Assembly: GCA_016124975.1 (NCBI GenBank) | Contig: WGMP01000020.1 | Coordinates: 28,795 to 92,794 of the forward strand | Source of the DNA: Phycisphaera sp. | GTDB taxonomy: Bacteria; Planctomycetota; Phycisphaerae; Phycisphaerales; SM1A02 | Direction: 5' to 3' | DNA: 64,000 nucleotides | Shown: positions 25,224 to 48,150 of the stretch, piece by piece | Position numbering within the stretch: the first letter of the stretch is position 1 | How the letters are laid out: the number at the start of each line of letters is the position of its first letter | Notes under the pieces: generated by a model | Database searches by the model: none | What the model was told of the DNA's origin: nothing | What the model saw: the letters and a program-made list of their open reading frames with translations, nothing else | Position numbers and translations under genes: made by a program

Positions 25224-25490
25224 GTGCCCAAGGATCTTGCCCGTATTCTCAGCCTCGAGGTTCCGCTGATCGTGCAGATCGCGGAGCGCCGCATGGCGCT
25301 CTCCGAGGTCACGGCACTCACCCACGGATCGATCATCGAGCTTCCGAAGTCGATCGAGGAGCCGCTCGATGTCCTCATCAACAACACCCAGATCGGGCAC
25401 GGCCTCGCCGTCAAGGTGAGCGAGAACTTCGGAGTGCACCTGACCAAGGTCTCCTCGCTGAAGGATCGGGTCGGTGCGCTCGGCGGTTGA
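25224..25490 (+). CDS. Single SpoA-domain (FliN/FliM C-terminal type) protein
   Basis: 88 residues. The whole protein is one SpoA domain, the beta-rich fold that forms the FliN and FliM C-terminal C-ring layers of flagellar switches and the SctQ sorting platform of type III secretion. Recognisable segments are LARILSLEVPLIVQIAERRM, the turn HGSIIELPKSIEEPLDVLIN and the C-terminal VSENFGVHLTKV. GTG 25224 is preferred because it starts where family members start. ATGs at 25125 and 25161 would add 21-33 unconserved residues. No other flagellar gene is present here. Confidence 0.8.
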   Translation: MPKDLARILSLEVPLIVQIAERRMALSEVTALTHGSIIELPKSIEEPLDVLINNTQIGHGLAVKVSENFGVHLTKVSSLKDRVGALGG

Positions 25491-25573
25491 GCGCCCCCTG
25501 TAGGAACCCCGCGGCGGGGTACCTTCCGTTCGCCGCCTCGCCGCTCCAGCTCTCCTACCCCGAAGACCCGCGC

Positions 25574-28842: not shown

Positions 28843-29073
28843 GGAAAGCGCAGGCGGCGCGAGGGAGGCGAAGGCGGCGCGAGGTCGGCTGCCTCGCCGC
28901 ACTCCGTGAGCGTCAAATTTTTCGTGGAGCCTGACTTCGTTCTGGAAGACGGGGCTGAGTGGCTGTAGACTTTTGCTTCCGCGAGGTCGTGCCGCGGAAG
29001 ATCGCTGCGTGGCCTCTGATTCGTCGCTCGACGGACTGAGGCTGATTCCGAACTCATTGGGAGAGATGACACC

Positions 29074-30525: not shown

Positions 30526-30538
30526 AAGGAGATCGATC

Positions 30539-33031: not shown

Positions 33032-33049
33032 CGACCGCGATCGCAGAGG

Positions 33050-33979
33050 TCACAGGCCACGCGGGGTGCCCGGGATCCAGCGGTCGCGATAGCGCGGCAG
33101 CGGCGCCGTGCAGGCGGAGAGCGTGTAGTTGAAGCCAGCGCCGAGAAGCGCTTCCTTGACGGCGTTGAAGGAGTCGAAGGAGTCGGGCGCGACATCGAGG
33201 AGCACCATGTCCTCGGAAGGGTCGAGCGCCGCGAGCAACTCCTGGAAGCGCGGATCGGCCAGCAGCGACGGCGTGTCGGTGATCGGTATGCCCGCGCCCT
33301 GCCGCAGCGGGATCGTGCGCGTGAAGCCCGTGGCGTTCATGCCGCGGCAGTCCCCGTCGAGGCTCGAGCCCGCGGCGACCACATAGCGGTCGTCCCACTG
33401 CTCGAAGCGCGCGCAGGTGTCGGGCGTGCCGTTCGACCAGTCGCAGACGGGATAGAGACGATCCTCCCAGACGACGACCGTGTAGATCCGCAGCTCGAGC
33501 GCGCGCTCGAGGGGCGTGCGCATGGTGCGGTCCTTGGCACGACGCGCTCCATCGAGCGAGGACTCGAGCCGCGCGACCTCCTCGCGCAGCGGCGCGACCT
33601 GCGCGCCGATGTCCGCAAGGTCGTCGGTGACGGCGGCGACGGCCTCGCTGTAGCGGTCGATCAGCTCTTCTCGTCGGGCGATCTCGCCGAGCGCCTCCGC
33701 CACCCGCTCGGCGGCGTCGGAGTCCTCCGTCACCTCGGCGGCGGCCGGAAGCGCGGAGAGCTCGCGCTCGAGCTCCTCTGCGCGCGCGGCGAGGAGCGCC
33801 ATCTGCCGCTCGCCGTCGGGGTCACCCGCGACGAGGCTTGGCTCGGGCGAACCCTTGGTCGAGGTGAGCGCGAGCAGTGCCGCGATGAGCGCCACGAAGA
33901 TGATCGTGCCGAACATGTTGCAGATCGTGTCGAGCAAGAGGTCGAGGCTGTCGTCCGAGTCGCTGCGTCGCCCTTTCAT
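33050..33979 (-). CDS. ExbD/MotB-like single-pass protein with periplasmic coiled coil (last gene of operon)
   Basis: 309 residues. The short acidic cytoplasmic N-terminus (SDSDDSLDLLLDTICNMFG) leads into one transmembrane helix (TIIFVALIAALLALTS, about 25-41). This layout, with an Asp at the membrane entrance, is that of ExbD/TolR/MotB proteins. A coiled coil spans about 58-150. The C-terminal 150 residues are a compact unrecognised domain with Cys and Trp residues (VVVWEDRLYPVCDWSNG). ATG 33979 overlaps the preceding stop (ATGA). It is predicted to pair with the MotA/ExbB-like protein encoded two genes upstream as part of an ion-driven or force-transmitting complex. Confidence 0.7.
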   Translation of the reverse strand: MKGRRSDSDDSLDLLLDTICNMFGTIIFVALIAALLALTSTKGSPEPSLVAGDPDGERQMALLAARAEELERELSALPAAAEVTEDSDAAERVAEALGEIARREELIDRYSEAVAAVTDDLADIGAQVAPLREEVARLESSLDGARRAKDRTMRTPLERALELRIYTVVVWEDRLYPVCDWSNGTPDTCARFEQWDDRYVVAAGSSLDGDCRGMNATGFTRTIPLRQGAGIPITDTPSLLADPRFQELLAALDPSEDMVLLDVAPDSFDSFNAVKEALLGAGFNYTLSACTAPLPRYRDRWIPGTPRGL

Positions 33980-34812
33980 GGCGCATCCTCCGCCTCGTCG
34001 GCGCGCACGCCCGGAAAGACAGGTGACACGAACGAACCCTCGGGAATGAAGTCGAGGCCGAGCCGCGGCCGCTCGGCGTCCGGCAAGGCCGCGATCGCAT
34101 CGAGCAGCGTCTCGTAGAGCGGCAGGCCCGACGGCGTGACCACGAGCAGGATGTACGACGGCCGCTCCTGCGCGAGCACCTTGAAGAGCGCGAGCGCGTC
34201 GAGCGCCTGCGCCGCGTGCGTGCCTGCCGCGATCCGCGAGGCGGCGCCGTTCTCCGCGTCCGTCACCACGATGCGGGACGCCGAGACCTCGAAGACGATC
34301 GGGCGAAGCGGCTCCGCGCTGTCGACGATGAAGGTGATGCGCTTGCGGCGCTCGACCCGCTGGAGCTCCTCCGCGAGCCGGTCGCGCGTCTGGGTCAGCT
34401 CGAGCACCTCGCGCAGGCCGGCCGCCTCGGGGTGCGCGACGAGCAGTTCGCGCAGCTGCGCCTCGAGCTCGCGCGTCCGCTCCGAAAGCGCGTCGAGCTC
34501 CGCGGCGCTTGCGAGGAGCTCCTGCCGCAGCGACGCGCGCCTCGCGAGGGGGTCGGTGTCGGGCCGCGCGCTCGCCGCGCGCACGGCGTGCTCGAGCGCG
34601 GCGATCCGGTCGCGCAGCGCGCGCTCGCGCTCGTCGAGCGGCACGCCGCCCTCGATCGAGACGCGCCGCCCGCCCGTCGCCTCCGTCGTGATCTCGGTCA
34701 CCTGGATGAGCAGGATCATGGTGATCACGATGGTGATGCCGATGACGCACACCATCACATCCTGGAAGGAGAAGAACGAGACGGGGGCGCCCGCGCCCGC
34801 GCGGCGGCGCAT
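33976..34812 (-). CDS. Second ExbD-like single-pass coiled-coil protein
   Basis: 278 residues. A short basic N-terminus with a polar FFSFQDVMVC entry precedes one transmembrane helix (VIGITIVITMILLIQV, about 22-38). A coiled coil runs from about 55 to 145, and a small alpha/beta domain (YILLVVTPSGLPLYETLLDAI) recalls the C-terminal domain of ExbD/TolR. ATG 34812 has AAGGAG nine bases upstream. The 3' end overlaps the next ExbD-like gene (ATGA). The two ExbD-like proteins differ in sequence and could form a heteromeric pair in one stator-like complex. Confidence 0.7.
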   Translation of the reverse strand: MRRRAGAGAPVSFFSFQDVMVCVIGITIVITMILLIQVTEITTEATGGRRVSIEGGVPLDERERALRDRIAALEHAVRAASARPDTDPLARRASLRQELLASAAELDALSERTRELEAQLRELLVAHPEAAGLREVLELTQTRDRLAEELQRVERRKRITFIVDSAEPLRPIVFEVSASRIVVTDAENGAASRIAAGTHAAQALDALALFKVLAQERPSYILLVVTPSGLPLYETLLDAIAALPDAERPRLGLDFIPEGSFVSPVFPGVRADEAEDAP

Positions 34813-34814
34813 GG

Positions 34815-35717
34815 TCACGGCTCCTTGCGCGCAATGCGCACGCGCGCGACGACGGCGTTCGAGCAGGCCGCGCGGATGTCGTCGCAGAGTGCCTCGTCGG
34901 CGCGCCGCACCGCGGTCTGGAGGAGGTGGATGACGAGCACGGCGATGAGCGCCTCCGCCGTCGTGATGAACGCCGTGTCGAGGCCCTCGAGGACCGTGCG
35001 CAGCTTCTCGGTGATCTGCCCCACATCGGTGCCCGCGACCTTCATCACATCGCCGAAGCGGCCCATCGCCTGCGTAAGGCCGATCACGGTGCCGATGAAG
35101 CCGAGCACGGGAATCGCCCACACGAAGCCGCGCAGCAGCGTGTAGCCCGAGTCCATGCTCGACTCGTCCTGGTCGCCGCGGCTCGACAGCACCTCGTCGA
35201 CATCGGAGACGCGCCCGAGGTTGCGCATCATGCGCAGCACGGCGCGGCAGCGCGCGAGGAACAGGAACCGCGACGGATCGTCGACGGAGCGGTCGATCGC
35301 ATCGATCACCGCGTCGGCGGTCGCGTCGGTGAGCACGAAGCCCGAGTCCTCGGGCACGAACGAGAGCCGCAGCGCCTGCTTCTGCGCGCGGATCTTCAGG
35401 CTCTTGACGAGGAGAAAGACGAGCGACCAGATCGAGAGGAACACGATCGGAATCGGGATCTGGCCGAAGCCCGTGGTGTAGTGCCACACGGCGGCGCCCC
35501 ATGGTTCACCGCGCAGCGCGTAGGCGGTGCCGTAGAAGACGGCTCCGACGACGAGCGCGAGGATGAACGAGGTAAGCGAGCTCGGCGTGGTGCCCTTCCC
35601 CGTTGGAAGGCCAAAGCGCGCCTCTGGGTCGAGGTCGTGGAAGCGCAGGATCGGCGCGGACGGAGGCCGCGCGGTCGGTGCGGAAGGCGTGAAGGTCGCC
35701 TGGCTCTGTGAGGTCAC
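34815..35717 (-). CDS. MotA/TolQ/ExbB-family membrane protein
   Basis: 300 residues with about four hydrophobic segments: two near the N-terminus (SFILALVVGAVFYGTAYAL and PIPIVFLSIWSLVFLLV) and two near the C-terminus (the proton-channel helices). The latter contain the family signature region WAIPVLGFIGTVIGLTQAM and TAFITTAEALIAVLVIHLL. ExbB/TolQ/MotA proteins form the pentameric part of ion-driven motors with ExbD/TolR/MotB. GTG 35717 overlaps the preceding stop (GTGA) and has AGGAG nine bases upstream. Two ExbD-like genes follow directly, completing the unit. Confidence 0.85.
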   Translation of the reverse strand: MTSQSQATFTPSAPTARPPSAPILRFHDLDPEARFGLPTGKGTTPSSLTSFILALVVGAVFYGTAYALRGEPWGAAVWHYTTGFGQIPIPIVFLSIWSLVFLLVKSLKIRAQKQALRLSFVPEDSGFVLTDATADAVIDAIDRSVDDPSRFLFLARCRAVLRMMRNLGRVSDVDEVLSSRGDQDESSMDSGYTLLRGFVWAIPVLGFIGTVIGLTQAMGRFGDVMKVAGTDVGQITEKLRTVLEGLDTAFITTAEALIAVLVIHLLQTAVRRADEALCDDIRAACSNAVVARVRIARKEP

Positions 35718-38701
35718 GACGGCAGTCTCCTGAAGATGAGGATCGGTCCCTTGGGAAGCGCCTGGCCGCGCGGATCGGCGCGCTCGTCGAGCACCCCGTC
35801 GCGGAGCGCGATCTCCGCGAAGGCCCAGCCCGTGCCTGCGCGGATGACGGCGACGAAGCGCCCCGACTCGCGCTTGCCGACGAGCTCTCGCGGTGCGCCC
35901 CTGTCTGCGGGCGCGAGCACCCCGAGCGGCGCAAGCGGCTTCAGCACGCTGGCCGCGCGCTCCTGCTCGGCGCGCGACTCCGCGAGGACGCTTGAGAGAT
36001 CGGGAAACCGTGCAAGCGCCGCGACGGCCTCCGCGCGCGCGTCGCGGAAGTTCACCTCCGGCTCGTGGCCCGCGCGCGGCCAGTCGGCGACCATGGCGCG
36101 CGATGCGCCGGCGCGCAGCGACTCGCGCCACGACAGGAACGGCTGCGCCAGCGCCTGCGGGAGATAGCCCGACCGCTCGAAGATCGAGGCGGCGTCGTGC
36201 AGCGCCCTGAGGCGCAGCAACGGCTCCGACTTCGCGGCCCTGATCGCCGAAAGGAGCTCGACGAGCGCCGCGCGCACATCCGCAGCGCCTGCGCCCTCGA
36301 ACCGCGCGACGGCGTCGCCCCAGGCCTTCGACACCTCGTTCAGGCGCGGCGCGCCCGCGAGATCCTCGCGCTTCACCCACAGGATCGAGTCGAGCCGCTC
36401 GGGCGGTGTCAAGAGGTCCGCAAGATTCTCAACCGCCTGGTTGCGCGGATCGGCCCCGTCAGCGGGCCTGCGATAGAAGATCCTTCCACCCGTGAGCGGC
36501 ACCTCCTCGAGGCCCGCGAGCCGCACGGCCGCAAGCTCCTCGCCCACGCGGCTCGGCGCCCACAGGTCTCCCGCGCGCGTCGGGTCGAAGCGCGCGGCGA
36601 TCGCGCGCAGGCTCTCGCCGAGCGGCGACGCGGGGTGCTTCGCGAGGAAGTCGTTCACGACCTCGACGACGCGCGGCTGCTGGTCGGGCGACGCATCGCC
36701 CGAGAGCCCCGCGCCGAGAAGCGCCGCAAGACGCGGACGATGGTCATCGCGCCATGCCTCGATCGCCTCCCACGCGGGCGCGAAGTCGCGCGCGGCCTCG
36801 AACGACGCGAGCCGCCCCTGCCTCGCGAGCACCGCGCCATGGCGCGAGAGGATGTCGGACAGGCGGCGCACGAAGTCCGACTCGAGCGTGACGGGCGCGC
36901 ACAGCCGCGCGGGGTCGAGATCGCGCAACGCAAGCTCAAGCGCCTCCGCGCGTGCCCGCGCCTCGGTGATCCGCGCGTCGATCGCCTCGCGCTTCAGGAG
37001 AAGCCGCGCGCGGGCCGTCTCGAGGCCCTCGCTTTCTGCGCGCGCGGCATCGAGCGCGCCACGCGCCGACTCGAGCGCTGCGAGCGCCGTCTTCCACGCG
37101 CCTGGGTCGACCTGCGCCGCATCCGGCCAGAGATCGGGAAGCTTCGTGTCCTTCAGGATCGCATCGGCCCGCGCGACCGCCGCGAGCGACGCGCGCTCGG
37201 CCTCGGCGTCGAGCTCGGCGAGGCGACCCGCGCGGCGGCGCTCGAGCCCGTCGAGCGCGATCCGCTCAGGCTCCTCGGCATCTTGACGGGCATCCGCGAT
37301 GAGGGCCTTCATGACGTCGACGCGCGCGCGCGCGGCGCCGCGTTCGAGCTCCGCCGCAAGATCCTCCGCCAGGCCTCGAATCTCAGCGGTCCTCGCGAGA
37401 CGCGCGCGGTGAAGCGCGTCCTCCTTCGCGAGCGAAGCCGCAAGCGCCGCGTCCACCGCGTCGCCGCGCGCGCGGATTCCCTCGGCGATCCCGCGCGCCT
37501 TCACGGCGTCGTTCGTCTCGATCGCGGCATCGAGCGCGGCGAGCTCCTGCGCGGCCCTGCGCGACTCGCCGACAGACCTGACGAGGAGCGTTCCCACGAC
37601 GGCGAGCGCGCAGGCGCCCGCAATCGCGCCGACAAGCATGAGCCCGTGCCTGCGGCGCGTCCGCTCGCGCTCGGCTCCGACGACGGCCACCGCGCGGTCG
37701 ACGAGCCCACGCGGCGCCTCGCGGCCCGCATCGCGCAGGACAGCGACCTGCCGCTCGATCTCGACCGCGGGCCGCGCCTCGGCGAGGAGCATCTCGAGCC
37801 GCTCGACCTCCGCCTCGAACGCCGCCCGCGCGGCGAGCTCGCGCTCGAGGTCGGTGAGCCACGCGAACGCGGGCGCGACCGACGCTGCAAGCGCGTCGTC
37901 CGGCATGCAGCCCGTCTCGAGGTTGACGGCCGCCCACGCCGCCTCGAGCCGCGTGAGCGCGTCACGGTCCATACGCGCGGCGGCGTCATGGATTTCCTCC
38001 GCAAGCCCCGCGAAGCGCGCCTGCGCCGCGCGCGCGCGCAACGGCGCCGCGAGCGCCACAAGCTCATCCCGCAGCCCGCGCGGCACGCCCGCGACCCACG
38101 GGTTCGTGTCGAGCGCCGCAATCGCCTCCTCGAGCTCGGCGAGCGTCGCTCCCGCGCGCCGCCGCAGCGCCGAGATCTCGCGAAGCCAGGCCGCCTCGAG
38201 CGACTCGATCTGATCGAGCCACATGCGGTTGCGCGAATCGGCGGCGCGGATCCGCCGCAGGATGCGGAGCCTCTCTGCGATCGGCTCGCGGCGCAGCGCG
38301 CTGAGCCGCAGCGCGTCGAGCAGCGCGCGATGCCCCTCGGCGCGCAAGGCGATGCCCGCAAGCGACTCGATCTCGGCCGCCGTCGGCATGGGAAGACGGC
38401 TGGCCGTCTCCGCCACCTCGCGCGCCCAGAAGCGGCCGACCGCGGCGTCGTCCGCGGCCAGCGTCCGCAGCGACTCGGCCTCGCGGACGAGACCGGGATA
38501 GTCCTCGATCACGGAGAGCGCCTCGCTCACGAGGCCGCGCTCCGCAAAGTCGACGGCGCGGTCGATCGACGCGCGCACGCCGCGCGCGCATGCCTCGAGC
38601 TCCTGCAGGAAAGTCGCGAGCGCGACATCGTCTGCCACGGTCTGCTGCGCAAGTTCGCGCAGGCCTTCGCGGATGGATCGGACGCTGGGAGTCATGCTCA
38701 T
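35714..38701 (-). CDS. Large helical protein with one central membrane segment
   Basis: 995 residues, unknown family. Residues 1-350 are an all-helical cytoplasmic region rich in Ala, Arg and Glu. One transmembrane helix follows at about 354-377 (MLVGAIAGACALAVVGTLLV), then a second long helical region (to about 700) and a more mixed C-terminal part that ends with beta-rich segments (GRFVAVIRAGTGWAFAEIAL). No catalytic motif is visible. Its size and single span suit a scaffold linking the cytoplasmic GTPases of this operon to the ExbB/ExbD-like complex, which is inference. ATG 38701 has no clear ribosome binding site; ATG 38695 is an alternative. It overlaps the next gene (GTGA). Confidence 0.75.
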   Translation of the reverse strand: MSMTPSVRSIREGLRELAQQTVADDVALATFLQELEACARGVRASIDRAVDFAERGLVSEALSVIEDYPGLVREAESLRTLAADDAAVGRFWAREVAETASRLPMPTAAEIESLAGIALRAEGHRALLDALRLSALRREPIAERLRILRRIRAADSRNRMWLDQIESLEAAWLREISALRRRAGATLAELEEAIAALDTNPWVAGVPRGLRDELVALAAPLRARAAQARFAGLAEEIHDAAARMDRDALTRLEAAWAAVNLETGCMPDDALAASVAPAFAWLTDLERELAARAAFEAEVERLEMLLAEARPAVEIERQVAVLRDAGREAPRGLVDRAVAVVGAERERTRRRHGLMLVGAIAGACALAVVGTLLVRSVGESRRAAQELAALDAAIETNDAVKARGIAEGIRARGDAVDAALAASLAKEDALHRARLARTAEIRGLAEDLAAELERGAARARVDVMKALIADARQDAEEPERIALDGLERRRAGRLAELDAEAERASLAAVARADAILKDTKLPDLWPDAAQVDPGAWKTALAALESARGALDAARAESEGLETARARLLLKREAIDARITEARARAEALELALRDLDPARLCAPVTLESDFVRRLSDILSRHGAVLARQGRLASFEAARDFAPAWEAIEAWRDDHRPRLAALLGAGLSGDASPDQQPRVVEVVNDFLAKHPASPLGESLRAIAARFDPTRAGDLWAPSRVGEELAAVRLAGLEEVPLTGGRIFYRRPADGADPRNQAVENLADLLTPPERLDSILWVKREDLAGAPRLNEVSKAWGDAVARFEGAGAADVRAALVELLSAIRAAKSEPLLRLRALHDAASIFERSGYLPQALAQPFLSWRESLRAGASRAMVADWPRAGHEPEVNFRDARAEAVAALARFPDLSSVLAESRAEQERAASVLKPLAPLGVLAPADRGAPRELVGKRESGRFVAVIRAGTGWAFAEIALRDGVLDERADPRGQALPKGPILIFRRLPS

Positions 38702-38717
38702 GGAGGTGCCCACGCTC

Positions 38718-39851
38718 TCACGCAAGAAGAAGGACGAGCGCCAAGACAAGCGCCACGACGAGCGCGGCGGCCGAGTAGGCGAAGAGAAGAGCGACGACGA
38801 GCCGTGCGCGACCGACCCGATGCCGCCGCGCCGCGGGCCACCCCGCGCCCAGCCCGAGTTCGGACGGTGCGTTCGCCTGCGCGCGACGCTCTGCGACCGC
38901 CGCTGCGAACCCGACCTCGGCGTCGGCCATGCCCGCATGCGACGCAGCGGAGAAGCCATCGCCGTTCGGTGCGTGTCGCACGGCGCGCGGAGGCTCCGCT
39001 TCCTCGACGGGCGCCTTGTGAAGGACAGGATTCACGCGAAGGCTCGGCGGCTCGCGCACGGCGGCCTCGACCGTCGCGCCTTCGCGCGCGGCGCGCGCGG
39101 CGGGTGCATCGCCCGCGGACACGCCGCGCACGACCTCGATCACCCGAACGCCTGGCTCGGCAAGCGTCGCGCGCACGCCGGCCGCGCCGGCGCACACGAA
39201 GCGCAGCTGGCAGCGTGTCCCCGCGGGCAGCCGCTGGAAGCGCGTCGAGAAGGTGACGAGCCAGCGCTTCTCGGCTGGAAGAAGCGCGAAAAGATCGACG
39301 ACAAGCGGCAGAAGGTCGGTCTCCTCGGGAAGCACCACGCACACGCTTGCCGACGGTGCGTCGAGGAGCGCCTGCGCCACCACGCCCGCCCAGCCCGCGT
39401 CGAAGCCAGCGTCTTCCCATGCGCTCGCGGGCCGCGGCCCGCACGAGCCGCGCGGAAGAAGCGGGCCCTGCGCGCGCTCCTCGACCGAAGGCACGCCCTC
39501 GCAGAACGCGCCGAACGCCGACAGCATCCACGCGGGCCCCGCCTCCGCACGCTCATGCGGCTCGAGCACGAGGTGATGCGCCACGCGGTTCGGGCGGCCG
39601 CTCCAGTCGTTCCCGCACGGCGCCGTGCGCGAAAGGACGGTGTGGCTCCGTCCCTGCACGGAGACGATGCGGTGCGCCCAGTCGATGCGGTCTGCGCCGA
39701 CCGCGCGCGTGCGGTCGAAGTCGTAGCCGCTGAGCTCCGCGAGCACGGGCTCGAGAGACGGCGGAAGCCCGCGCGTCACGACGGCGAGCGCAAATCCGCT
39801 CTGCCCGCGCACGCCGCGCTCGACCGAAGTGTGGACGAACTCATGGCTCAT
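38718..39851 (-). CDS. GAP1-N2-type GTPase-associated protein with C-terminal membrane anchor
   Basis: 377 residues. The first 130 residues match my memory of the GTPase-associated protein 1 N-terminal domain, type 2: FVHTSVERGVRGQSGFALAV, LSGYDFDRT, then HRIVSVQGRSHTVLSR and the GRPNRVAHHLVLEP motif. Such proteins occur beside TRAFAC-like GTPases in planctomycetes and actinobacteria. A second alpha/beta region (SVCVVLPEETDLLPLVVDLFALL) follows, then a linker and a C-terminal membrane helix (VVALLFAYSAAALVVALVLALVLLL, residues about 349-373), described here in part. ATG 39851 overlaps the GTPase gene stop (ATGA). It probably binds or regulates the GTPase encoded just upstream. Confidence 0.75.
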   Translation of the reverse strand: MSHEFVHTSVERGVRGQSGFALAVVTRGLPPSLEPVLAELSGYDFDRTRAVGADRIDWAHRIVSVQGRSHTVLSRTAPCGNDWSGRPNRVAHHLVLEPHERAEAGPAWMLSAFGAFCEGVPSVEERAQGPLLPRGSCGPRPASAWEDAGFDAGWAGVVAQALLDAPSASVCVVLPEETDLLPLVVDLFALLPAEKRWLVTFSTRFQRLPAGTRCQLRFVCAGAAGVRATLAEPGVRVIEVVRGVSAGDAPAARAAREGATVEAAVREPPSLRVNPVLHKAPVEEAEPPRAVRHAPNGDGFSAASHAGMADAEVGFAAAVAERRAQANAPSELGLGAGWPAARRHRVGRARLVVALLFAYSAAALVVALVLALVLLLA

Positions 39852-41095
39852 GCGCGCGCGAACTCCCTGAAGAGCGCGGGCTCCGCCTCCGAGAGCGCCA
39901 CGACGAGCGGCGCCGCGGGCCACATCGGACGGAGGTCGCGCGGGCGGATCGCAAGCGCCGCGGCGGCCGCGACGCGCGACGGCGCGCTTCCGAGCCCGCT
40001 GAACGGCACCACGCGCAGGCGCGGGTCGAGCGCGCGTGCCGTCGCGAGGAACTCGGGCATGTGGGCCGCGAGGAACCGAGCGCTCGCGCCGTCGATCTCC
40101 GCGAGGACCTCGGGCGACGGCACCGCGATGCTCGGTCGGGCGGGAAGACGCTCGGCGGCGCTTCGGATCTGCGGCTCCGCGAGATGGCCCCAGATGTCGG
40201 CCTTCGCCAGCGCCAGCACGATGCGCAGCGGCAGCGGCTCGTTCGCGCCGAGCCCACGCAGGCGTCGCACGCGGTTCGCGGCCTCGATGAGCACGAGGTC
40301 CTGCCGCTGCTCGAGGCTTCCTGCGCCTCCCATCGACTGCACGGCCTCGCGCCCGCCGAGACGCTCGATCACGCGCTGGTCCTGCGTCGGGTCGACCACG
40401 AAGACAAGCGCCCGCGACACCGCGAGATGCCGCGTCACGGGTTCGTGCGGCGCATCTGCGCCCGGGAGGAAGTGCTCGCCTGCGTTGTCGTAGAGCGCGA
40501 GGAGATGCCGCGCACCGCCGCGACCGATCACGAAGAGCTGCGGCTTCGGGGCCGTCCACGACGCGTCGGCGAAGCGGAACGAACGGTAGAGCCTGCCCGA
40601 GAGATCCGTCTTCGCGATCATCGTCGGCCTGTCGGGCGTCGACGAGCGGAAGAGCGCCGACTCAAGCTCGACCGTGAGGTCGTTGAGCGTCGGATCCGCG
40701 TCGAGGAACTCGAGCCCGTCGACGACAAGCCCCGAGCGCATCGAGAAGCTCGCCGCCGCGAGCATGACGGACTTCCCGCACGCGGGCGCGCCCACGATCG
40801 AGAGGATCGTCTGCGGCAGCTCGATCACGGCAGGCGGAAGCTCGAGGTGGCAGCGCGGGCACGCGAGGCGCGTGCATGCGGCGCCCAGCGGGTCGATCGC
40901 GCGCCCCTGCGCGTCGAAGCGGCTCGGAAGAAAGCGGAGCTGCGCCGCGTCACCGAGCACGGCGTCCCCGCGCAGCGCCGCGTGCTCGGAGATGAAGCGC
41001 ACCGTCGCGGGCGCGAACTCGTGCCAGCAGTGTGGGCAGGTGATGGTCGAGACAAGCGTTCGGGTCGACATGGTTTCGCTCGGCGTGTGCGTCAC
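39848..41095 (-). CDS. Zinc-ribbon TRAFAC-like GTPase
   Basis: 415 residues. Two CxxC pairs (Cys20/23, Cys79/82) form an N-terminal zinc ribbon. The GTPase core has a P-loop GAPACGKS (102-109), a switch-II motif YDNAGEHF (D-x-x-G) and an ALAKADIWGH segment at the place of the N/TKxD base-recognition motif. The Asn/Thr is replaced by Ala, so nucleotide specificity is uncertain. The arrangement resembles double-GTPase-type TRAFAC proteins that co-occur with GAP1 proteins. GTG 41095 is chosen because it overlaps the protease stop (GTGA), like the other junctions here; ATG 41071 is an alternative. It lies directly upstream of the GAP1-N2 gene. Confidence 0.8.
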   Translation of the reverse strand: MTHTPSETMSTRTLVSTITCPHCWHEFAPATVRFISEHAALRGDAVLGDAAQLRFLPSRFDAQGRAIDPLGAACTRLACPRCHLELPPAVIELPQTILSIVGAPACGKSVMLAAASFSMRSGLVVDGLEFLDADPTLNDLTVELESALFRSSTPDRPTMIAKTDLSGRLYRSFRFADASWTAPKPQLFVIGRGGARHLLALYDNAGEHFLPGADAPHEPVTRHLAVSRALVFVVDPTQDQRVIERLGGREAVQSMGGAGSLEQRQDLVLIEAANRVRRLRGLGANEPLPLRIVLALAKADIWGHLAEPQIRSAAERLPARPSIAVPSPEVLAEIDGASARFLAAHMPEFLATARALDPRLRVVPFSGLGSAPSRVAAAAALAIRPRDLRPMWPAAPLVVALSEAEPALFREFARA

Positions 41096-42750
41096 GGTGT
41101 GGCTGGCGGCTTCGCGCCCGAGGGCGCCGGCGGTCCCATCTGCGTGCCTGTCGCGCGCTCGAGCACGACGACGAGGTGGCGCGCGTCGATCGCTTCGCCG
41201 AGGAAGAGCGTGCCGATCGAGATCGAGAGATCGGAGCCCGCGAGGAGCGACGCAGCGACATCGCTTCCAGGAATCGTCAGCAGGGCTCCGACCACCTCGC
41301 CGTGCGCGACGGCGAGATTGCTGCCGAAGCCGCTCCAGGTGGCGCCCGCCGCGCCACCGACGGAGACATCGACGATGTCAAGGTCGACCGCGCGATCACG
41401 CGGCAGCGCGAGGACCGCGACCTCGACCGACCCCGGCCCGACCACGCGATGGGCGAACGAGCCGAGGCGCGCGCCATCGGTCGCGGCGATGCCGCGTGCG
41501 GTCACGGTCCAGCCCTCGCGCTCAAGGAAGCGCAGGAGATCGAGAAACCCCGCGAAGGTGCTCCATCCGCGCGCCTCGTCGACGACGCCCGCGGGCGGCG
41601 TCGGCTCTGCGGCCGCCGCCATGATCGACTCGCGCACAGCGCGCAGCGCCGGCCCCGAGCGCACGATGTCGAGCACCTGGTCGGCCGCGAGCGCGAACTT
41701 GAGCCCCGCGCGCTCGCTGCCGTCTGCGTTGCGCTCGCCCCAGGTGGCGACGGCCGCAACCTCGAGCGAATCCTCGAGCATGAGTGGCCCGCCGCTGCAG
41801 CCGTCGGAGAAGTTCGCGCTCGTCTGGACGAGCGTGGGCTTTCCGCTGGCGCGGCGCACGCCCGAGATCAATCCGTCGAAGAGGCTGTGCGTGGCCACAC
41901 CGCGCGCCTCGTCGTCGCCGTCGGCGGCGAGGTCGAACGCACGCGACGCGACATGCCCAAGCGCCACCACGCGCGTACCGACGGCGAGGTCCGCCGAAGG
42001 TGCGATCTCGAGCGGCTCCACCCCGATCCGCTCGATCTGCGGCCTGAAGGCCTCGATGCTCACGGCGGCGAGGTCGAACTCGCGCGCGTCGGGCGCGATC
42101 TCCATCACCTCGAGGAAGCGCGGATGCACGCGAAAGTCGCGCGCGGCGAGCCCAGGCAGTCGGAACAAGACGCTGCCATCCGCAGGACTCCTGAAGATCG
42201 CGTCGACCGCGCGCGCGCCCTCGATCACATGGAAGTTGGTGACGAGCCAGAGGACGCCGCGGTCCTCGATCACGAAGCCTGTGCCCGTGCCGAGGTCGCT
42301 CGTGATCTGCGGAACCGCAAGCTGGTATTTCGCCCACTCGACGCCTGCAGGCCGCGCGCGCAGATGGTTCACAAGGAGCACGGCGCCGACGATGAGGACG
42401 GCGATCGACGCCGCGACGATGCCCAGCGCCTTGATGAGCCGCGCAGCCCCGCCGTCGGCCTCGCGCTGCGCGGCGACCTCCGCAGCGACCTTCGACTCGA
42501 CCGCGACGCGGTACGCCTCATCGAGCCTGCGCGCATCGACCGCGCGCGGACGCTCACCGAGCGTGAACGCAGCGCCCGAGAGCGGCTGCGCGCGACGACG
42601 CGCCTCTGCGGCGGGATCGGCGGATTGCGCAGGCGGCGCACCGCCCCCACCGTCGTTCTGCGCGCCGCAGCGCCTGCAAACGACGGTCTTCCCAGCGTTC
42701 GCACGCGCGACGAGGTATTCGAGTCCGCAGTTGTGGCAGTGGGAGGTCAT
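41092..42750 (-). CDS. Membrane-anchored trypsin-like serine protease with N-terminal zinc ribbon
   Basis: 552 residues. Residues 1-35 are an MJ0042-like zinc ribbon (CHNCG and CRRCG). One transmembrane helix spans about 106-128, and residues 150-350 are a chymotrypsin-fold protease with His174 (VTNFHVIE), Asp226 (EFDLAAVS) and Ser319 (DGCSGGPLML). The zinc ribbon is cytoplasmic and the protease outside if the positive-inside rule holds. The C-terminal 190 residues are not a recognisable PDZ domain. ATG 42750 overlaps the upstream GAP1-like stop (ATGA), so it is translated with the GTPase genes. A role in processing or activation of the operon's envelope components is inferred. Confidence 0.88.
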   Translation of the reverse strand: MTSHCHNCGLEYLVARANAGKTVVCRRCGAQNDGGGGAPPAQSADPAAEARRRAQPLSGAAFTLGERPRAVDARRLDEAYRVAVESKVAAEVAAQREADGGAARLIKALGIVAASIAVLIVGAVLLVNHLRARPAGVEWAKYQLAVPQITSDLGTGTGFVIEDRGVLWLVTNFHVIEGARAVDAIFRSPADGSVLFRLPGLAARDFRVHPRFLEVMEIAPDAREFDLAAVSIEAFRPQIERIGVEPLEIAPSADLAVGTRVVALGHVASRAFDLAADGDDEARGVATHSLFDGLISGVRRASGKPTLVQTSANFSDGCSGGPLMLEDSLEVAAVATWGERNADGSERAGLKFALAADQVLDIVRSGPALRAVRESIMAAAAEPTPPAGVVDEARGWSTFAGFLDLLRFLEREGWTVTARGIAATDGARLGSFAHRVVGPGSVEVAVLALPRDRAVDLDIVDVSVGGAAGATWSGFGSNLAVAHGEVVGALLTIPGSDVAASLLAGSDLSISIGTLFLGEAIDARHLVVVLERATGTQMGPPAPSGAKPPATP

Positions 42751-44780
42751 GGCGATGTGCTCTCATCCTCTACGCGAGCTGTGCACTTGAGCTCGGCACT
42801 GAACCCATGCGTGAGCTTGCCCGATCTCCACTTGAGCTCGAGTGCCTCTCCAACGATGCCTTGAAACACAAGATCTGGCGAGGCCGATTTGCCCTGGGAC
42901 TTGTTCGCGCGCCGCTGCTCAAGCTCTTGCTCAACATCCTGATTCCACTGCTGCGCGTCATGCTCGGAACCAACCAGTGCCTCAATCTTCTCTTGGAGCT
43001 TGAGTAGGCAGTCCCTCCACTTCCCAACGAGGACTGCGTTCAGCAGATCGTTGCGCTGACTGGGGCCTGGAGGGCCTTGCCGTATCAGCGAGCAGATGAA
43101 CCCATTGCTGTCTCGAATCTGATCATCAATGGTCTGGTCATGACTTTTGGCTTCGTCTTTCCGACGCTGATCAATCTCGATCGCCTCGATCATGTGCTTG
43201 ACCGCGATGGATGCGAGTTGCCGACGAGCACGAGCTCTTGCCATCGAATACCCCTGCGCGTCAAGACCGGTGCCGGACCGCCGACCGCTTCCATCCTCAG
43301 GGGACTCGGAGCGCTCGGCTGTCGGGATCTGGAGTGTTCCGATTGCATTTCGGAACCGATACAGACTCTGATGGTCGGGAGAAAGATGATCGCGGAGAGC
43401 ACCGCTCGGATCAGGCTCTTGCGAGCGGTCAAGGTCTGCTTCCGCTGGCTTCGATGACTCGCTCTCCTTGTCTGCGCCGGACGGATCTCCTCCGCTCGCA
43501 TTGCGGTCCTGAGACGGAGGCGTTGTCTCAGCTGGCGCGGAAGATCCACCTTTGGCAACCTCCGAAGTGGAATTGGCTTCCGGTGCAGCGTGGCCCTGGT
43601 CGTCCGCCTGAGGACCACCGCTCGCGGAAGCACCCGTCGGCGGCGCCACCTGCTTCGGCGACTCGGATTCCGCATCCGATTTCGCGCCCGCCGCCGCACC
43701 GTTCGACGCCTCCACAACCTCCACCACCTTCGGCAACTCCCCGCTCAACGGGTCGCCGCCTGCGTCGCTCGGCGCCGCGCCCGTGTCGGATGACGGCGCA
43801 AACACGGGCACCTCCACCTCCGCCGCGTTCTCGCGGCGGCTCCACATCGTGAGCGCGAACGCAAGCACCACGGTCGACAGCGCCGCGGAGCCGATCGCGA
43901 GCGGCATCAGCCGTCGCGCGCGCGCGTCGCCATCCTCGCTGTACGGTGCCACGCCATCGCCGCGGGTGCGTACGCGCCGCTCGTCGTCGTCGTCGCGCAC
44001 CACGAGCGTGCGCCCCTGCGACTCGACCTCCGCGATCGACGGAAGGTGCGCGCCGCCCGCCGAGGCGCGGAACGCGGCATACTCGCTCTCGGCGCCGCAA
44101 TGCCACGCGCCTTCATCCGCGGGGCGGAGCGCGGAACGCGCGCCGAGGAGCGAGGTTCCCGACGACATCGAGCAGAGATCGACGGGCGCGGAGAGCGAGA
44201 GAAGCCCGATTCCGAAGCGCAGCCGCGCACGGTCCGACGGATCAAGCGCGGCGACGAGCGCGAGCACCGAGTCGGACTCGCCCTCGGGCACCACGCCGAC
44301 CGCGCCGTCGCGCAGCGCCGCGCGCCAGAGGTCGAAGAGCGCAAGGACGCGCGGGTTGCGCGCAGCAGCGGCGGCGTCGGCTTCCTCCGCGTCGATGCGC
44401 GCCCCGTCGCCCGCGGTCGCGCGCGCGGTGCGCCAGAACTCGGCGTCCGACGCAAGCCGCGGCAGCGCGCCCGCGAGAAGCGAAAGGTCGCGCGCCTCGA
44501 AGAGGAGCGTGATGACCTCGACAGTCGGCCGCCCCGCGTCGTCGAACCCGGCGGGCATCATGCGCGAGACGGCGAAGCGCCCCGAGCGGAGCGCGCGGCC
44601 CGTCATCACGGCGTGCGTCTCGAGCCGCGCGATCCGCTCTGCGGTCGACGCCTCGCCGAACTGGAAGCTCTCGAGCTCGCGCGTCTCGTCGGCCGCGACG
44701 CCGCGCGACGCGGCCACGGTGCCGTAGCCTCGGAGCGAGCCGAGGACATGCGTCTCTGCAAGGATCGTTCGACTGGCCAT
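42747..44780 (-). CDS. GAP1-like membrane protein with compositionally foreign C-terminal domain
   Basis: 677 residues. Residues 1-250 resemble GAP1 N-terminal regions: LGSLRGYGTVAASRG and SGRFAVSRMMPAGFDD followed by a TVEVITLLFE strand. A transmembrane helix follows at about 287-310 (LAIGSAALSTVVLAFALTMW). The next 170 residues are a disordered Ser/Pro/Glu/Asp/Gly linker, ending in a helical domain of about 170 residues (SMARARARRQLASIAVKH onward). Bases coding for roughly the last 250 residues (42780-43560) are near 50% G+C against more than 70% for the first half. ATG 44780 is placed six bases after GGAAAGG. It overlaps the protease gene and follows the GTPase gene by 36 bp. Confidence 0.75.
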   Translation of the reverse strand: MASRTILAETHVLGSLRGYGTVAASRGVAADETRELESFQFGEASTAERIARLETHAVMTGRALRSGRFAVSRMMPAGFDDAGRPTVEVITLLFEARDLSLLAGALPRLASDAEFWRTARATAGDGARIDAEEADAAAAARNPRVLALFDLWRAALRDGAVGVVPEGESDSVLALVAALDPSDRARLRFGIGLLSLSAPVDLCSMSSGTSLLGARSALRPADEGAWHCGAESEYAAFRASAGGAHLPSIAEVESQGRTLVVRDDDDERRVRTRGDGVAPYSEDGDARARRLMPLAIGSAALSTVVLAFALTMWSRRENAAEVEVPVFAPSSDTGAAPSDAGGDPLSGELPKVVEVVEASNGAAAGAKSDAESESPKQVAPPTGASASGGPQADDQGHAAPEANSTSEVAKGGSSAPAETTPPSQDRNASGGDPSGADKESESSKPAEADLDRSQEPDPSGALRDHLSPDHQSLYRFRNAIGTLQIPTAERSESPEDGSGRRSGTGLDAQGYSMARARARRQLASIAVKHMIEAIEIDQRRKDEAKSHDQTIDDQIRDSNGFICSLIRQGPPGPSQRNDLLNAVLVGKWRDCLLKLQEKIEALVGSEHDAQQWNQDVEQELEQRRANKSQGKSASPDLVFQGIVGEALELKWRSGKLTHGFSAELKCTARVEDESTSP

Positions 44781-44816
44781 CCGCATCCTTTCCAATCGCC
44801 GCACCGCGGCCAGCTG

Positions 44817-45974
44817 TCAGGGCCGCACGGCGAACCAGGTCACCACGCCCACCACCGTGAAGAGGAGGACGACCGCGATGGTGAAGATCACCCACGCGTT
44901 CGTCGTCCGCGCCTTCTCTGTCTTCTCGTTCTGCGCGGCGCGCCAATGCGCCTCCTGCGCAAGCCGCTGCGCCTCGCGGATACGCTCTTGGTCTGCGCCC
45001 GCGTCCATCATCTCGAAGCAATAGCGGAGCGGCTCCACCACGTTCTCGGCGGGAAACTCCGCGCGCGGCACGCCTCTTCCGAGCGCGTTCTCCGACATGC
45101 GAACGGCCACCGATGCGAAGACGCTCGCGTTGGCGACCGTGCGGAACATCTGCCCGAAGTGCCTGCGCATGAACTCGCGCACGCCGCCCGCCTCGCGAAG
45201 CAGCGCACGGTTCAGGTCCGTCTTCGTCAGGACCACCGCGATCGGCACACGCTCGCCGCCGTGGCTCTGCCGAATGCGCGACGCGGCCTGCGTGAGCCCG
45301 AAGGTGTCCTCCTGCGCCTCCTCGCCGCCCGCGGCGACGACGGCGGGGTCGATGAGGAAGATCGCGGCGGCCGCGCGGTCGATCGCGGCGAGAAGCTCGA
45401 CGGCGTCGGGGTCGCGCGAATCATGCATGAACGCCTTGCGGAAGACCTCGCCCGGATAGTCGAGCGCTGTCAGGAGCCGCTCGCGGCCCGCGTAGGTGAC
45501 GAGAAGCTCGGCGTAGCTGCTTCCGAGGGTCGCGGCGGGCCAGCGCCCCGCGCGCAGCTCCTCGATGACGCGCATGAACTGGGTGTGGGCGGCGCCCGAG
45601 GTGGCGCGGCAGGTCATCTCGACCACGCGGCGCCTGTCCGCCCGCGCCCGCTCATCGATCGGTTCGCCCCGCGCGGGAATCCGGCCATCGATGAGCGTGC
45701 AGCCCTGCCAGAGCGATTCGTAGAGCCGCGCGAGATAGATCGTCTTTCCCGCGCGGCGACGCCCGATCACCACGATGCGGTCGCGGACGGGCGGCGCAGG
45801 CCGCGCGGGTGCTGCCGCCGCGGCGTCTCCTGCCGCAGGCGCGGCAAGAGCGTCCGAAGCCGAATGCCGCTGGTCACCCATCGCGAACCCCCGATTGCGC
45901 CCGGGTTCGCGCGCTGGCGATGCGTGCATCACGGCACGCGGCGTCTGCCGCCGCTGCAAAGCAGCCACGGTCAT
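44817..45974 (-). CDS. Tail-anchored TRAFAC-like GTPase (first gene of the nine-gene operon)
   Basis: 385 residues. An Ala/Pro-rich leader of about 65 residues precedes the GTPase domain. It has a P-loop GRRRAGKT (71-78), switch II in LTALDYPGEVFR (D-x-x-G) and VVLTKTDLNR as the TKxD guanine-specificity motif. A C-terminal transmembrane helix (NAWVIFTIAVVLLFTVVGVVTWF, about 360-382, shown in part) anchors it with the GTPase in the cytoplasm. It fits the double-GTPase-type TRAFAC proteins that partner GAP1 proteins. The start may be ATG 45974 or GTG 45968; AAAGG abuts the ATG. It diverges from the zinc-ribbon gene at 46165 across a 190-bp spacer of lower G+C that should hold both promoters. 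Confidence 0.82.
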   Translation of the reverse strand: MTVAALQRRQTPRAVMHASPAREPGRNRGFAMGDQRHSASDALAAPAAGDAAAAAPARPAPPVRDRIVVIGRRRAGKTIYLARLYESLWQGCTLIDGRIPARGEPIDERARADRRRVVEMTCRATSGAAHTQFMRVIEELRAGRWPAATLGSSYAELLVTYAGRERLLTALDYPGEVFRKAFMHDSRDPDAVELLAAIDRAAAAIFLIDPAVVAAGGEEAQEDTFGLTQAASRIRQSHGGERVPIAVVLTKTDLNRALLREAGGVREFMRRHFGQMFRTVANASVFASVAVRMSENALGRGVPRAEFPAENVVEPLRYCFEMMDAGADQERIREAQRLAQEAHWRAAQNEKTEKARTTNAWVIFTIAVVLLFTVVGVVTWFAVRP

Positions 45975-46164
45975 CCTTTCGCAGTCTTGTCCATCGTTTC
46001 ATATTCACCCCGCGCGAAAGGTAATCGAAGATTGGGTCGCGCTGCAAGTCATGGTCGAAGCGGGTTCACGCCCTCGCGCGCGGCGTGGCATCGAAGGAGC
46101 TAGGATCGTCGACCCGACCGTCAGACTTTCTGACGGAGTTTGATCGAAACGCCTCGCGAACCCC

Positions 46165-46920
46165 GTGCATCAGGAACTTCTTGGCCGCCCGCAGCTTGAA
46201 GCGCGCACCGTCGAACGGTGCGAGCGCTGCCGCGTCGAGCGGCCGCTCGGAAGCAGCGCGGCCTGCCGATGCGTGCAGCCCGCGTGGAAGCCGTACTGCG
46301 TGCGCTGCGCGCGTGTCATCGAAGGGACGATCTGCCCGCATTGCCTCGAGGTCGCGGAGACGAACGGGAGGCAGTTGCGCGCCACGCTCGAGGGAATCCT
46401 CGCGCCACGCGGCGGCATCGCGGGTGCGCTCGCCGCGCACGAGCGCCTGAAGGACCGCGTGACGCGGGCAATGACCGAGTTCTCGATCTCCAGCGCCCTC
46501 CCCGTACTCCCCGATTGGGCCATGTCGCTCGCCGACCCCCGCGCGCCCCTTCCGCCGGGCACCGAACATTCGCGGACCAAGATGGAGGCCGCCCGCGCGC
46601 TGCGGCTTGAAGAGGCCGCTGTGCGCCTCGCCCTCGACGGACTCGCCTATTCGGGTCTACCCACCGAGCAGCGGCTCCAGTCTGCGGTCGGCAGTGGCGA
46701 TTCCGCGGCCGCTTCCCTCGCCTCGTGGGACGGCTTGGTGGCAAGCCCTGCGCAGGATCATGCCCTTCGCGAGGCGGCTCGCACGCTTTTGTCGACTGAT
46801 TCTCTTGCAGCCACCCTGCTCGAGTCGATCACCAAGCGTGATCTCGGGCGGTTGGTCGAGGCCGCCGTCCGTCGTGGACGCGCCCTCGAGGCATGCCGCC
46901 GGGCATTCGGCGTCGGCTGA
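46165..46920 (+). CDS. Zinc-ribbon protein of unknown function, divergent from the GTPase operon
   Basis: 251 residues. The N-terminal 65 residues contain a dense set of Cys residues (CERC, CRC, CVRC, CPHC), enough for two treble-clef or ribbon zinc sites. The rest is alpha-helical with no recognised motif. An in-frame TGA at 46141 limits the start to the region just upstream, and GTG 46165 is the only standard start there. No ribosome binding site is visible. Its stop overlaps the next gene's start (TGATG). Zinc ribbons also occur in two proteins of the divergent operon. Confidence 0.65.
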   Translation: MHQELLGRPQLEARTVERCERCRVERPLGSSAACRCVQPAWKPYCVRCARVIEGTICPHCLEVAETNGRQLRATLEGILAPRGGIAGALAAHERLKDRVTRAMTEFSISSALPVLPDWAMSLADPRAPLPPGTEHSRTKMEAARALRLEEAAVRLALDGLAYSGLPTEQRLQSAVGSGDSAAASLASWDGLVASPAQDHALREAARTLLSTDSLAATLLESITKRDLGRLVEAAVRRGRALEACRRAFGVG

Positions 46921-48017: not shown

Positions 48018-48144
48018 ACATCCCGTGCGGAGCGTCGTACGGACCCTCCGCGGCTTCTCGTCGGGAGCGCTCTCCGGAAACCGTCTCCGAAAGCCCGCGC
48101 CGAGGGCCTTCTTCGAAAACCTCGCCCCAGCCAAGATCACCCCG

Positions 48145-48150
48145 TATACT
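48145..48150 (+). promoter_or_regulatory. -10 element of an apparently leaderless transcript (Bax inhibitor-1 family gene)
   Basis: TATACT (5 of 6 to TATAAT) is followed by only eight bases before the ATG at 48159. Transcription would start at or next to the start codon. No ribosome binding site is present in that gap. Confidence 0.5.

What the first reader, a model, noticed from the sequence alone, without database searches (positions are those of the whole stretch)
33050..45974. Nine-gene GTPase / GAP1 / protease / ExbBD-like operon: candidate undescribed envelope machine
Seen: nine minus-strand genes with seven of eight junctions at 16 bp or less, six of them 4-bp ATGA/GTGA overlaps. They encode two P-loop GTPases (GRRRAGKT, GAPACGKS), two GAP1-like membrane proteins, a zinc-ribbon membrane trypsin, a 995-residue helical membrane protein, a MotA/ExbB-like protein and two ExbD-like proteins. 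Established: ExbB/ExbD/TolQR/MotAB pairs form ion-driven motors, and TRAFAC-type GTPases co-occur with GAP1 proteins in loci suspected of conflict or regulatory roles. Inference: here the GTPase/GAP1 module appears joined to an ion-motor-like complex and a protease, with a VWA lipoprotein and a transglutaminase-like protein at its borders. That would be a GTP-controlled, force-transducing envelope system.
Basis: partly seen in the sequence, partly recalled or inferred. Interest (0 to 1): 0.88.

Follow-up and report, generated by a model that had tools for sequence, protein, structure and literature searches.

The report
GTPase-switched ion-motor gene cluster
A planctomycete carries, on a stretch of chromosome that six close relatives lack, a nine-gene cluster joining two proteins with GTPase motifs to parts of a predicted ion-driven membrane motor, and the same six-gene core recurs across related bacteria, so it likely works as one GTP-controlled cell-envelope machine, possibly for defence.

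Summary
The nine-gene minus-strand operon (33050-45974) is real: all eight junctions are 16 bp or less and six are 4-bp overlaps. It encodes two DO-GTPase2-type GTPases, two GAP1-N2 proteins (GAP1 means GTPase-ASSOCIATED protein 1), a zinc-ribbon/TM/trypsin, a 995-aa single-TM helical protein (g6), a MotA/ExbB-family protein and two ExbD-like proteins. The two halves belong together: the order GTPase-GAP1-g6-ExbB-ExbD1-ExbD2 recurs in 28 of 32 g6-bearing loci from unnamed Planctomycetota genomes and in 40 of 46 evaluable loci from named records (overlapping sets). Motor residues are invariant (ExbB T210, T252, T253; ExbD1 D20; ExbD2 D17), and so is DNAGE in P-loop g4 GTPases. Where g4 shows no P-loop (9 named loci), 7 of 9 carry the other GTPase, g1, nearby. 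A vWA gene usually lies convergent behind the operon; the transglutaminase-like gene does not belong. Six genus-mates lack the segment at the same site, so it is accessory. I read it as a GTPase-gated three-protein ion motor serving envelope surveillance or conflict. The conserved gene set is well supported; the mechanism is inferred and the task is not shown. The GAP1-system paper and three motor papers that I searched by word do not mention the combination.

The parts
44817..45974 (-). g1: DO-GTPase2-type GTPase (GRRRAGKT, DYPGE, TKTD) with one C-terminal TM segment
   Evidence: Pfam DO-GTPase2 44.5 bits; motifs; TM 360-378
42747..44804 (-). g2: GAP1-N2 protein with one TM segment (302-320) and a low-complexity region after it
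   Evidence: Pfam GAP1-N2 28.6 bits; TM
41092..42750 (-). g3: zinc ribbon, TM (109-127), trypsin-like protease with candidate His, Asp and Ser of the triad (TNFHV, D226, GCSGG). Optional part of the system
   Evidence: Pfam Trypsin_2 68.1 bits; motifs; patchy in relatives
39848..41095 (-). g4: GTPase without TM, two N-terminal CxxC pairs (zinc-ribbon-like), GAPACGKS, DNAGE
   Evidence: Pfam DO-GTPase2 31.7 bits; DNAGE in 22 of 22 P-loop members, window included
38718..39851 (-). g5: GAP1-N2 + GAP1-M protein with C-terminal TM
   Evidence: Pfam GAP1-N2 63.3 and GAP1-M 42.0 bits; TM 358-376
35714..38701 (-). g6: 995-aa helical protein with one central TM (356-374), predicted N-in, long distal helical part and a beta-containing C-terminal region; no known family
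   Evidence: no Pfam hit; AF2 mean pLDDT 84.6; at least one TM in 30 of 32 relatives; no Foldseek match with E<=0.001
34815..35717 (-). g7: MotA/ExbB-family subunit; P203, G206, G209, T210, G213, T252, T253 invariant
   Evidence: Pfam MotA_ExbB 40.8 bits; alignment of 30
33976..34818 (-). g8: ExbD-like subunit 1: TM starting with invariant FQD (D20), coiled coil, distal domain resembling TolR/ExbD
33050..33979 (-). g9: ExbD-like subunit 2: invariant D17 at the TM start, coiled coil, ExbD-like distal domain
   Evidence: alignment of 28; hhalign to ExbD 78%, to g8 97%
30392..33031 (+). vWA-domain protein with a long Gly/Ser/Ala-rich linker, lipoprotein-like (the window copy has an atypical PSGC site; several close relatives have standard lipoboxes); convergent with the operon. 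The true start is probably downstream of 30392
   Evidence: Pfam VWA_3 47.4 bits; N-termini; on the opposite strand behind the motor in 32 of 57 named loci with 3.5 kb downstream
28830..48145 (.). Variable chromosomal segment (about 19 kb) absent at the same site in six genus-mates, where the flanks lie about 1 kb apart

Best explanation
The cluster encodes the parts of what is likely one membrane machine, an ion-driven ExbB/ExbD1/ExbD2 motor predicted to be switched from the cytoplasm by DO-GTPase/GAP1 pairs, and it probably serves as an accessory envelope-surveillance (conflict-type) system. Shown by sequence: the genes form a tight gene run, the GTPase/GAP1 half and the motor half recur together with g6 in fixed order, and the Thr/Asp residues expected of the ion path and the GTPase motifs are conserved. 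Inferred: an ExbB pentamer surrounds an ExbD1-ExbD2 heterodimer; the two ExbD coiled coils and the linker-borne vWA protein reach into the periplasm or outer membrane; g6, spanning the inner membrane with about 350 residues inside and about 620 outside, couples the motor to the GAP1/zinc-ribbon GTPase complex; an envelope disturbance, or a cytosolic signal read by the GTPases, would gate the motor; the membrane protease, where present, would act as one output. The defence-type task is the least certain step.
For: Order g4-g5-g6-g7-g8-g9 in 28 of 32 g6-bearing loci (2 of the other 4 are cut by contig ends); in 40 of 46 named loci with at least 6 kb upstream and 1.8 kb downstream, all six genes on one strand in 41. 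GAP1-N2 within 20 kb of 14 of 19 close ExbB relatives and 0 of 30 distant ones. Distances of g5-g9 correlate across 29 rows (ten pairs, Mantel r 0.54-0.93, 0 of 2000 permutations as high; g4 was not in this test). Invariant motor residues. DNAGE in 22 of 22 P-loop g4. In 9 of 53 named loci with a g4 hit, g4 shows no P-loop (3 run off a contig end); 7 of the 9 have a P-loop g1. Six unnamed loci whose g4 lacks the P-loop were extended downstream, and all six show P-loop g1 and g2. Accessory: empty site in six genus-mates, none of which has a g6 match anywhere; g6 in 6 of 16 genomes of the genus. DO-GTPase/GAP1-N2 pairs were proposed as conflict-system switches (PMC7159879).
Against: No ion flow, GTP hydrolysis, complex or phenotype has been shown. 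Pfam ExbD does not match g8 or g9, and g8 against ordinary ExbD gave 0.3% in profile comparison. The TolR/ExbD fold match of g8 ties with ribosomal S11 and Pelota folds. No nuclease or toxin effector is encoded; PADLOC matches of the nine proteins are weak. I traced clear defence genes to the flanks of only 1 of 7 genomes. The FNIII component of published GAP1-N2 systems was not found. L089, L091 and L209 carry the motor without a g4/g5 hit.
Confidence: 0.5

Rival explanations
1. It works like the Myxococcus Agl-Glt machine: a TolQ-like ring with two TolR-like subunits controlled by a small GTPase (MglA's role is recalled knowledge), used for surface translocation, cargo transport or secretion rather than defence.
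For: AglR plus AglQ and AglS is also one TolQ-like and two TolR-like proteins (PMC3169522, passages); vWA and long linkers suit force transduction (PMC12204202, section 8).
Against: g1 and g4 are DO-GTPase2 by Pfam; no family hit for Glt parts except a weak low-complexity GltJ match of g2 (E 0.0078); patchy presence within one genus would be unusual for a motility machine, though not excluded.
Confidence: 0.2
2. It is an elaborated Tol/Ton-like force transducer for outer-membrane stability or uptake, and the GTPases merely regulate it.
For: PVC bacteria have vWA force transducers beside a tolQ-like gene and two tolR-like genes (PMC12204202 section 8, read in full); a vWA gene lies beside the motor here; motors of ExbB plus ExbD-like genes without GAP1/g6 hits occur in L092-L099.
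Against: No SHLS-spaced motif in 22 vWA rows; no receptor or Pal-like partner among the nine proteins; six genus-mates lack it.
Confidence: 0.2
3. Two independent accessory modules (a GTPase/GAP1 conflict system and a motor) merely share a favoured island.
For: 25 of 43 GAP1-N2 places lie away from this motor (two of them, G025 and G202, sit on other contigs of genomes that have the motor), and some related motors lie without GAP1 (L092-L099, L089, L091).
Against: Fixed order in 40 of 46 named loci, overlapping genes, correlated divergence, and GAP1-linked ExbBs grouping apart from motor-only ExbBs (though the separating branch is weak, 45/99).
Confidence: 0.1

Closest known systems
DO-GTPase/GAP1-N2 systems (Kaur et al. 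2020, PMC7159879)
   Same: DO-GTPase with two N-terminal zinc-ribbon-like CxxC pairs followed by GAP1-N2/M; a second GTPase with TM; trypsin or TM-rich partners noted in planctomycetes
   Different: No FNIII component found; g1 has one C-terminal TM and not the four N-terminal ones described; partner is an ExbB/ExbD/ExbD motor plus g6; the words MotA, ExbB and TolQ do not occur in the paper's main text
PVC vWA force-transducer motors (PMC12204202)
   Same: tolQ-like gene, heterologous pair of tolR-like genes, vWA protein, PVC bacteria
   Different: No SHLS motif in the vWA rows here, no TPR hit, and DO-GTPase/GAP1/g6 added; GTPase not mentioned in that paper's main text
Zorya ZorAB (PMC11890865)
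   Same: MotA/ExbB-family motor in an accessory module; weak PADLOC match of g7 to ZorA (E 3.4e-4) and g8 to ZorB (E 0.0097)
   Different: No long ZorA tail, no OmpA-like Pfam hit, no ZorC/D/E model hit; GTPase/GAP1 instead
Myxococcus AglRQS with MglA
   Same: One TolQ-like plus two TolR-like subunits and a GTPase link (recalled)
   Different: Different GTPase family by Pfam, no Glt set among the nine proteins, GTPases encoded inside the operon

Membership tests
DO-GTPase/GAP1-N2 conflict system | DO-GTPase with P-loop and Walker-B glutamate | tested here: met
   g1 and g4 DO-GTPase2 above cut-off; DYPGE, DNAGE
DO-GTPase/GAP1-N2 conflict system | GAP1-N2 protein encoded next to the GTPase, with GAP1-M | tested here: met
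   g5 GAP1-N2 63.3 and GAP1-M 42.0 bits; g2 GAP1-N2 only; no GAP1-C hit
DO-GTPase/GAP1-N2 conflict system | FNIII-repeat component | tested here: not met
   no FN3-type Pfam hit at E<=5 in the nine proteins; so it shares the core pair but is not filed as a canonical member
MotA/TolQ/ExbB ring | MotA_ExbB domain and polar Thr residues of the ion path | tested here: met
   40.8 bits over cut-off 22.9; T210, T252, T253 invariant in 30
ExbD/TolR subunit | Pfam ExbD match | tested here: not met
   not among the hits of g8 or g9 at E<=5; no match in this contig at E<=1
ExbD/TolR subunit | Asp at the start of a single TM | tested here: met
   D20 and D17 invariant in 28 rows each; TM positions
ExbD/TolR subunit | TolR/ExbD periplasmic fold | tested here: inconclusive
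Zorya | ZorA cytoplasmic tail, ZorB OmpA-like domain, ZorC/D or ZorE | tested here: not met
   g7 is 300 aa; no OmpA Pfam hit; no ZorC/D/E model hit
PVC vWA force-transducer motor | SHLS motif in the vWA anchor helix | tested here: not met
   spacing pattern S-x3-H-x6-L-x3-S (spacing recalled) absent in 22 of 22 vWA rows
Agl-Glt gliding machine | MglA-type GTPase and Glt proteins | tested here: inconclusive
   no such Pfam/NCBIfam assignment in the nine proteins; Glt homologues elsewhere in the genome were not sought
Ion-driven motor | ion flow and torque | not testable with these tools
   needs experiment

The most novel reading that the evidence does not exclude
A new class of energised envelope machine: an ExbB ring with an obligate ExbD1/ExbD2 heterodimer, wired by a trans-membrane rod (g6) to a DO-GTPase/GAP1 switch and a vWA tether, so that GTP state gates an ion motor (or motor torque gates the GTPase). 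It would be to PVC bacteria what Zorya is to proteobacteria, a mechanically sensing immune system without a nuclease.
Probability: 0.35. Interest if true: 0.88.

Novelty: new variant of a known kind. Interest (0 to 1): 0.68.

Why it matters
In the paper that named them, DO-GTPase/GAP1 systems are computational predictions, and a 2025 paper on periplasmic force transducers notes that motor-driven envelope systems remain to be discovered. This cluster ties the two together in Planctomycetota and some other PVC bacteria and gives testable residues (D20, D17, T210, both P-loops) and named strains that carry it: Botrimarina colliarenosi Pla108 (L192) and Candidatus Laterigemmans baculatus JC640 (L222).

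Tried and rejected
Transglutaminase-like border gene as a part: rejected (1 of 16 genus genomes; only itself in the locus survey). Known fold for g6: Foldseek gave nothing at E<=0.001 and VIA-align rows are mid-Z helical matches, so no fold is claimed and no absence is claimed. g8 against ordinary ExbD by hhalign: 0.3%, a result against the ExbD reading. Sequence search of PDB with A2 and A3: the 60 rows shown of 230 and of 523 are coiled-coil-type matches; I saw no ExbD or TolR among them. Defence-island test: PADLOC at E<=1e-10 listed 47 family names among 96 flank ORFs (25 shown) and 5 among 100 control ORFs, but family names pile up on a few proteins. I traced clear defence genes to one genome only, after scanning 10 of the 96 flank proteins singly plus the one shown; three of the seven genomes are one genus. 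Treated as weak. The tree does not prove a single origin of the GAP1 link: 'GAP1+' needs 5 changes, to which rows cut by contig ends, the two rows without GAP1 and a long ordinary row contribute. In checking this report I found that one search counted presence on one strand, not order; one search recounts it (41 present, 40 in order).
Full report
OBSERVATION. The window lies in contig C46 of a 3.61-Mb, 97.6%-complete genome. A genus-mate (G093) shares a contig length (14478) with a record titled 'Planctomycetota bacterium isolate ZH-13MAY13-plancto13', and some near relatives of g7 are named Phycisphaerales.

WHAT THE PROTEINS ARE. Pfam: g1 and g4 DO-GTPase2; g2 and g5 GAP1-N2, g5 also GAP1-M; g3 Trypsin_2; g7 MotA_ExbB; g6, g8, g9 none above cut-off. 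In the source paper GAP1 stands for GTPase-associated protein 1 (PMC7159879; passages and section 29 read), so no GTPase-activating function should be read into the name. g4 has two CxxC pairs and no clear TM (the one weak hydrophobic stretch covers its P-loop); g1 has a C-terminal TM. g3 has a zinc ribbon, a TM and a protease domain with candidate His, Asp and Ser residues.

g6. 995 aa with one central TM; at least one TM in 30 of 32 relatives (L072 is a fragment; L079 gave none), with more Lys/Arg on the N side than on the C side in 28 of those 30, suggesting N-in. AF2 mean pLDDT 84.6, almost all helical up to residue 726, then a mixed region. No structural relative was found.

DO THE HALVES BELONG TOGETHER? 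In the family search 33 of 101 genomes have a close g7 relative (E<=1e-27; the next weaker match is 1.1e-11); in the phylum search 43 of 392 at E<=1e-15. I took 20 of 36 places with E<=1.7e-27 and 20 of 49 places, chosen for contig length and spread. Thirty-two of these 40 loci have g6; 28 of the 32 have g4-g5-g6-g7-g8-g9 in this order (checked), two (L062, L072) are cut by contig ends and two (L089, L091) have no g4/g5 hit; the other eight (L092-L099) hold only ExbB plus ExbD-like genes. A scan of named genomes returned 80 loci of 275 that encode a relative, the cap of the tool. Most titles say Planctomycetota or its subgroups or 'uncultured bacterium'; some say Victivallales, Lentisphaeria or Verrucomicrobiales, and one short contig (L162) says Bacteroidia. 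Of 46 with at least 6 kb upstream and 1.8 kb downstream of g7, 41 have all six genes on one strand and 40 have them in the same order; L200 (Victivallaceae) has them rearranged. Of the other five, L229 has g4/g5 on the opposite strand, L204, L216 and L225 have g6-g9 with only about 6.2 kb upstream, and L209 has only g7 and g8. One Victivallales locus (L224) has the standard order. In 392 Planctomycetota genomes 18 of 43 GAP1-N2 places lie within 20 kb of a g7-like ExbB; 14 of 19 ExbB places with E<1e-38 have one, 0 of 30 weaker places do (threshold set after seeing the lists). Of the five exceptions G028, G202 and G025 sit on short contigs or near a contig end, while G271 and G156 are real exceptions. 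Distances among 29 rows correlate for all ten pairs of g5-g9 (r 0.54-0.93; 0 of 2000 permutations); g4 was not in this test, and relatedness of hosts contributes.

A TELLING VARIATION. Seven of 28 unnamed loci (L060, L061, L064-L067, L070) and nine of the 53 named loci with a g4 hit have a g4 with no P-loop match; in the unnamed ones the part that remains is the zinc-ribbon end (three printed). L173, L188 and L198 of the named ones run off a contig end. Seven of those nine named loci (L160, L163, L165, L168, L173, L180, L188) carry a P-loop g1 and g2 beyond the vWA gene; in the other two, L182 ends behind g7 and L198 showed none. Six of the seven unnamed ones were extended downstream (L231-L236) and all six show P-loop g1 and g2; L237, extending L062, does too; L238, extending L068 whose g4 has its P-loop, does not; L070 was not extended. 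So the machine seems to need one working GTPase while keeping the zinc-ribbon/GAP1 part.

THE vWA GENE. It ends 18 bp from the end of g9 on the other strand. Among named loci with 3.5 kb downstream, 39 of 57 have a vWA hit and 32 have it on the opposite strand behind the motor. Several close relatives have lipoboxes; the window copy has only an atypical PSGC site; in L075-L079 and L088 the protein is TM-anchored, mostly with a Gly-rich linker. The SHLS pattern of the PVC vWA force transducers is absent in 22 of 22 rows.

ACCESSORY SEGMENT. The GH15 gene on the left (25487-27586) is in 16 of 16 genus genomes. In six of eight fetched genus-mates (L113, L114, L115, L116, L119, L120) the Bax-inhibitor gene at 48145 follows the left flank after about 1 kb, against 19.3 kb in the window; the other two contigs (L117, L118) end before the right flank. 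L115 also lacks the gene at 27.7-28.8 kb, and L116 keeps a piece of 46.2-46.4 kb. G493 has a collinear copy (77% identical from 31934 to 41072) next to the same left flank. g6 occurs in 6 of 16 genus genomes (4 of 9 good-quality), and in none of the six empty-site genomes. In the ExbB tree the window's family holds two distant subclades (L060-L073, L074-L079) with other families between them, which suggests transfer or old paralogy. No att-like repeat or tRNA was seen.

DEFENCE CONTEXT. PADLOC on the nine proteins gave only weak hits (ZorA, ZorB, LmuB, RT-Protease and PDC-S45 models, best E 3.7e-5). Ten kilobases on each side of seven loci (96 ORFs) were compared with 100 ORFs of control regions from the same genomes. 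Clear neighbours are GmrSD/HEC-05, UzuA and a PDC-S37/Hhe-type protein, on the same strand within 10 kb upstream of the L080 operon; transposase families occur in the flanks (Pfam was not run on the controls). One genome of seven is weak support.

LITERATURE. Main texts searched by word: PMC7159879 has no MotA, ExbB or TolQ; PMC12204202 no GTPase (section 8 read); PMC12505986 no GTPase; PMC11890865 no GTPase. Library searches listed no paper that describes the combination, judged by titles and abstract beginnings; most listed papers were not opened. Supplements were not open to me, and preprints and subscription papers are largely missing. PMC11237479 mentions a DO-GTPase family protein in Psp operons with a predicted membrane-stress role (passage).

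MECHANISM. Committed reading: an ExbB ring with an ExbD1/ExbD2 heterodimer makes an ion motor; g6 links it across the inner membrane to GAP1 and the zinc-ribbon GTPase; the vWA protein anchors or reads the outer side; the GTPases gate it, or are gated by it, and a protease is an optional output. Only anatomy and conservation are shown; the rest is inference. The accessory pattern and the kinship of the GTPase/GAP1 pair make a conflict or envelope-surveillance role my first choice over motility-like or Tol-like roles.

Noticed in passing
L060, L061, L064-L067, L070; L160, L163, L165, L168, L180, L182: g4 relatives that show no P-loop beside a GAP1 gene; in those printed only the zinc-ribbon end is left
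   Followed up: partly
L092-L099: Motors of a longer ExbB (about 440-660 aa) plus ExbD-like genes without hits to the GTPase, GAP1 or g6 profiles in Planctomycetota; sister set of unknown role (L092 shows one ExbD-like gene only)
   Followed up: partly
window 46893-48017: Transglutaminase-like secreted protein with no Pfam match at E<=0.01, found in only 1 of 16 genomes of the genus
   Followed up: partly
window 29074-30525: 483-aa ORF, predicted secreted by eye, inside the variable segment, unassigned
   Followed up: no
L249 10046-18446: GmrSD-type, UzuA-type and PDC-S37/Hhe-type defence genes within 10 kb upstream of one copy of the operon (L080)
   Followed up: partly
L081, L082, L084: A second GAP1-N2 gene upstream of g4, and roughly 0.9-1.3 kb of extra sequence between g6-g7 and g7-g8
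   Followed up: no
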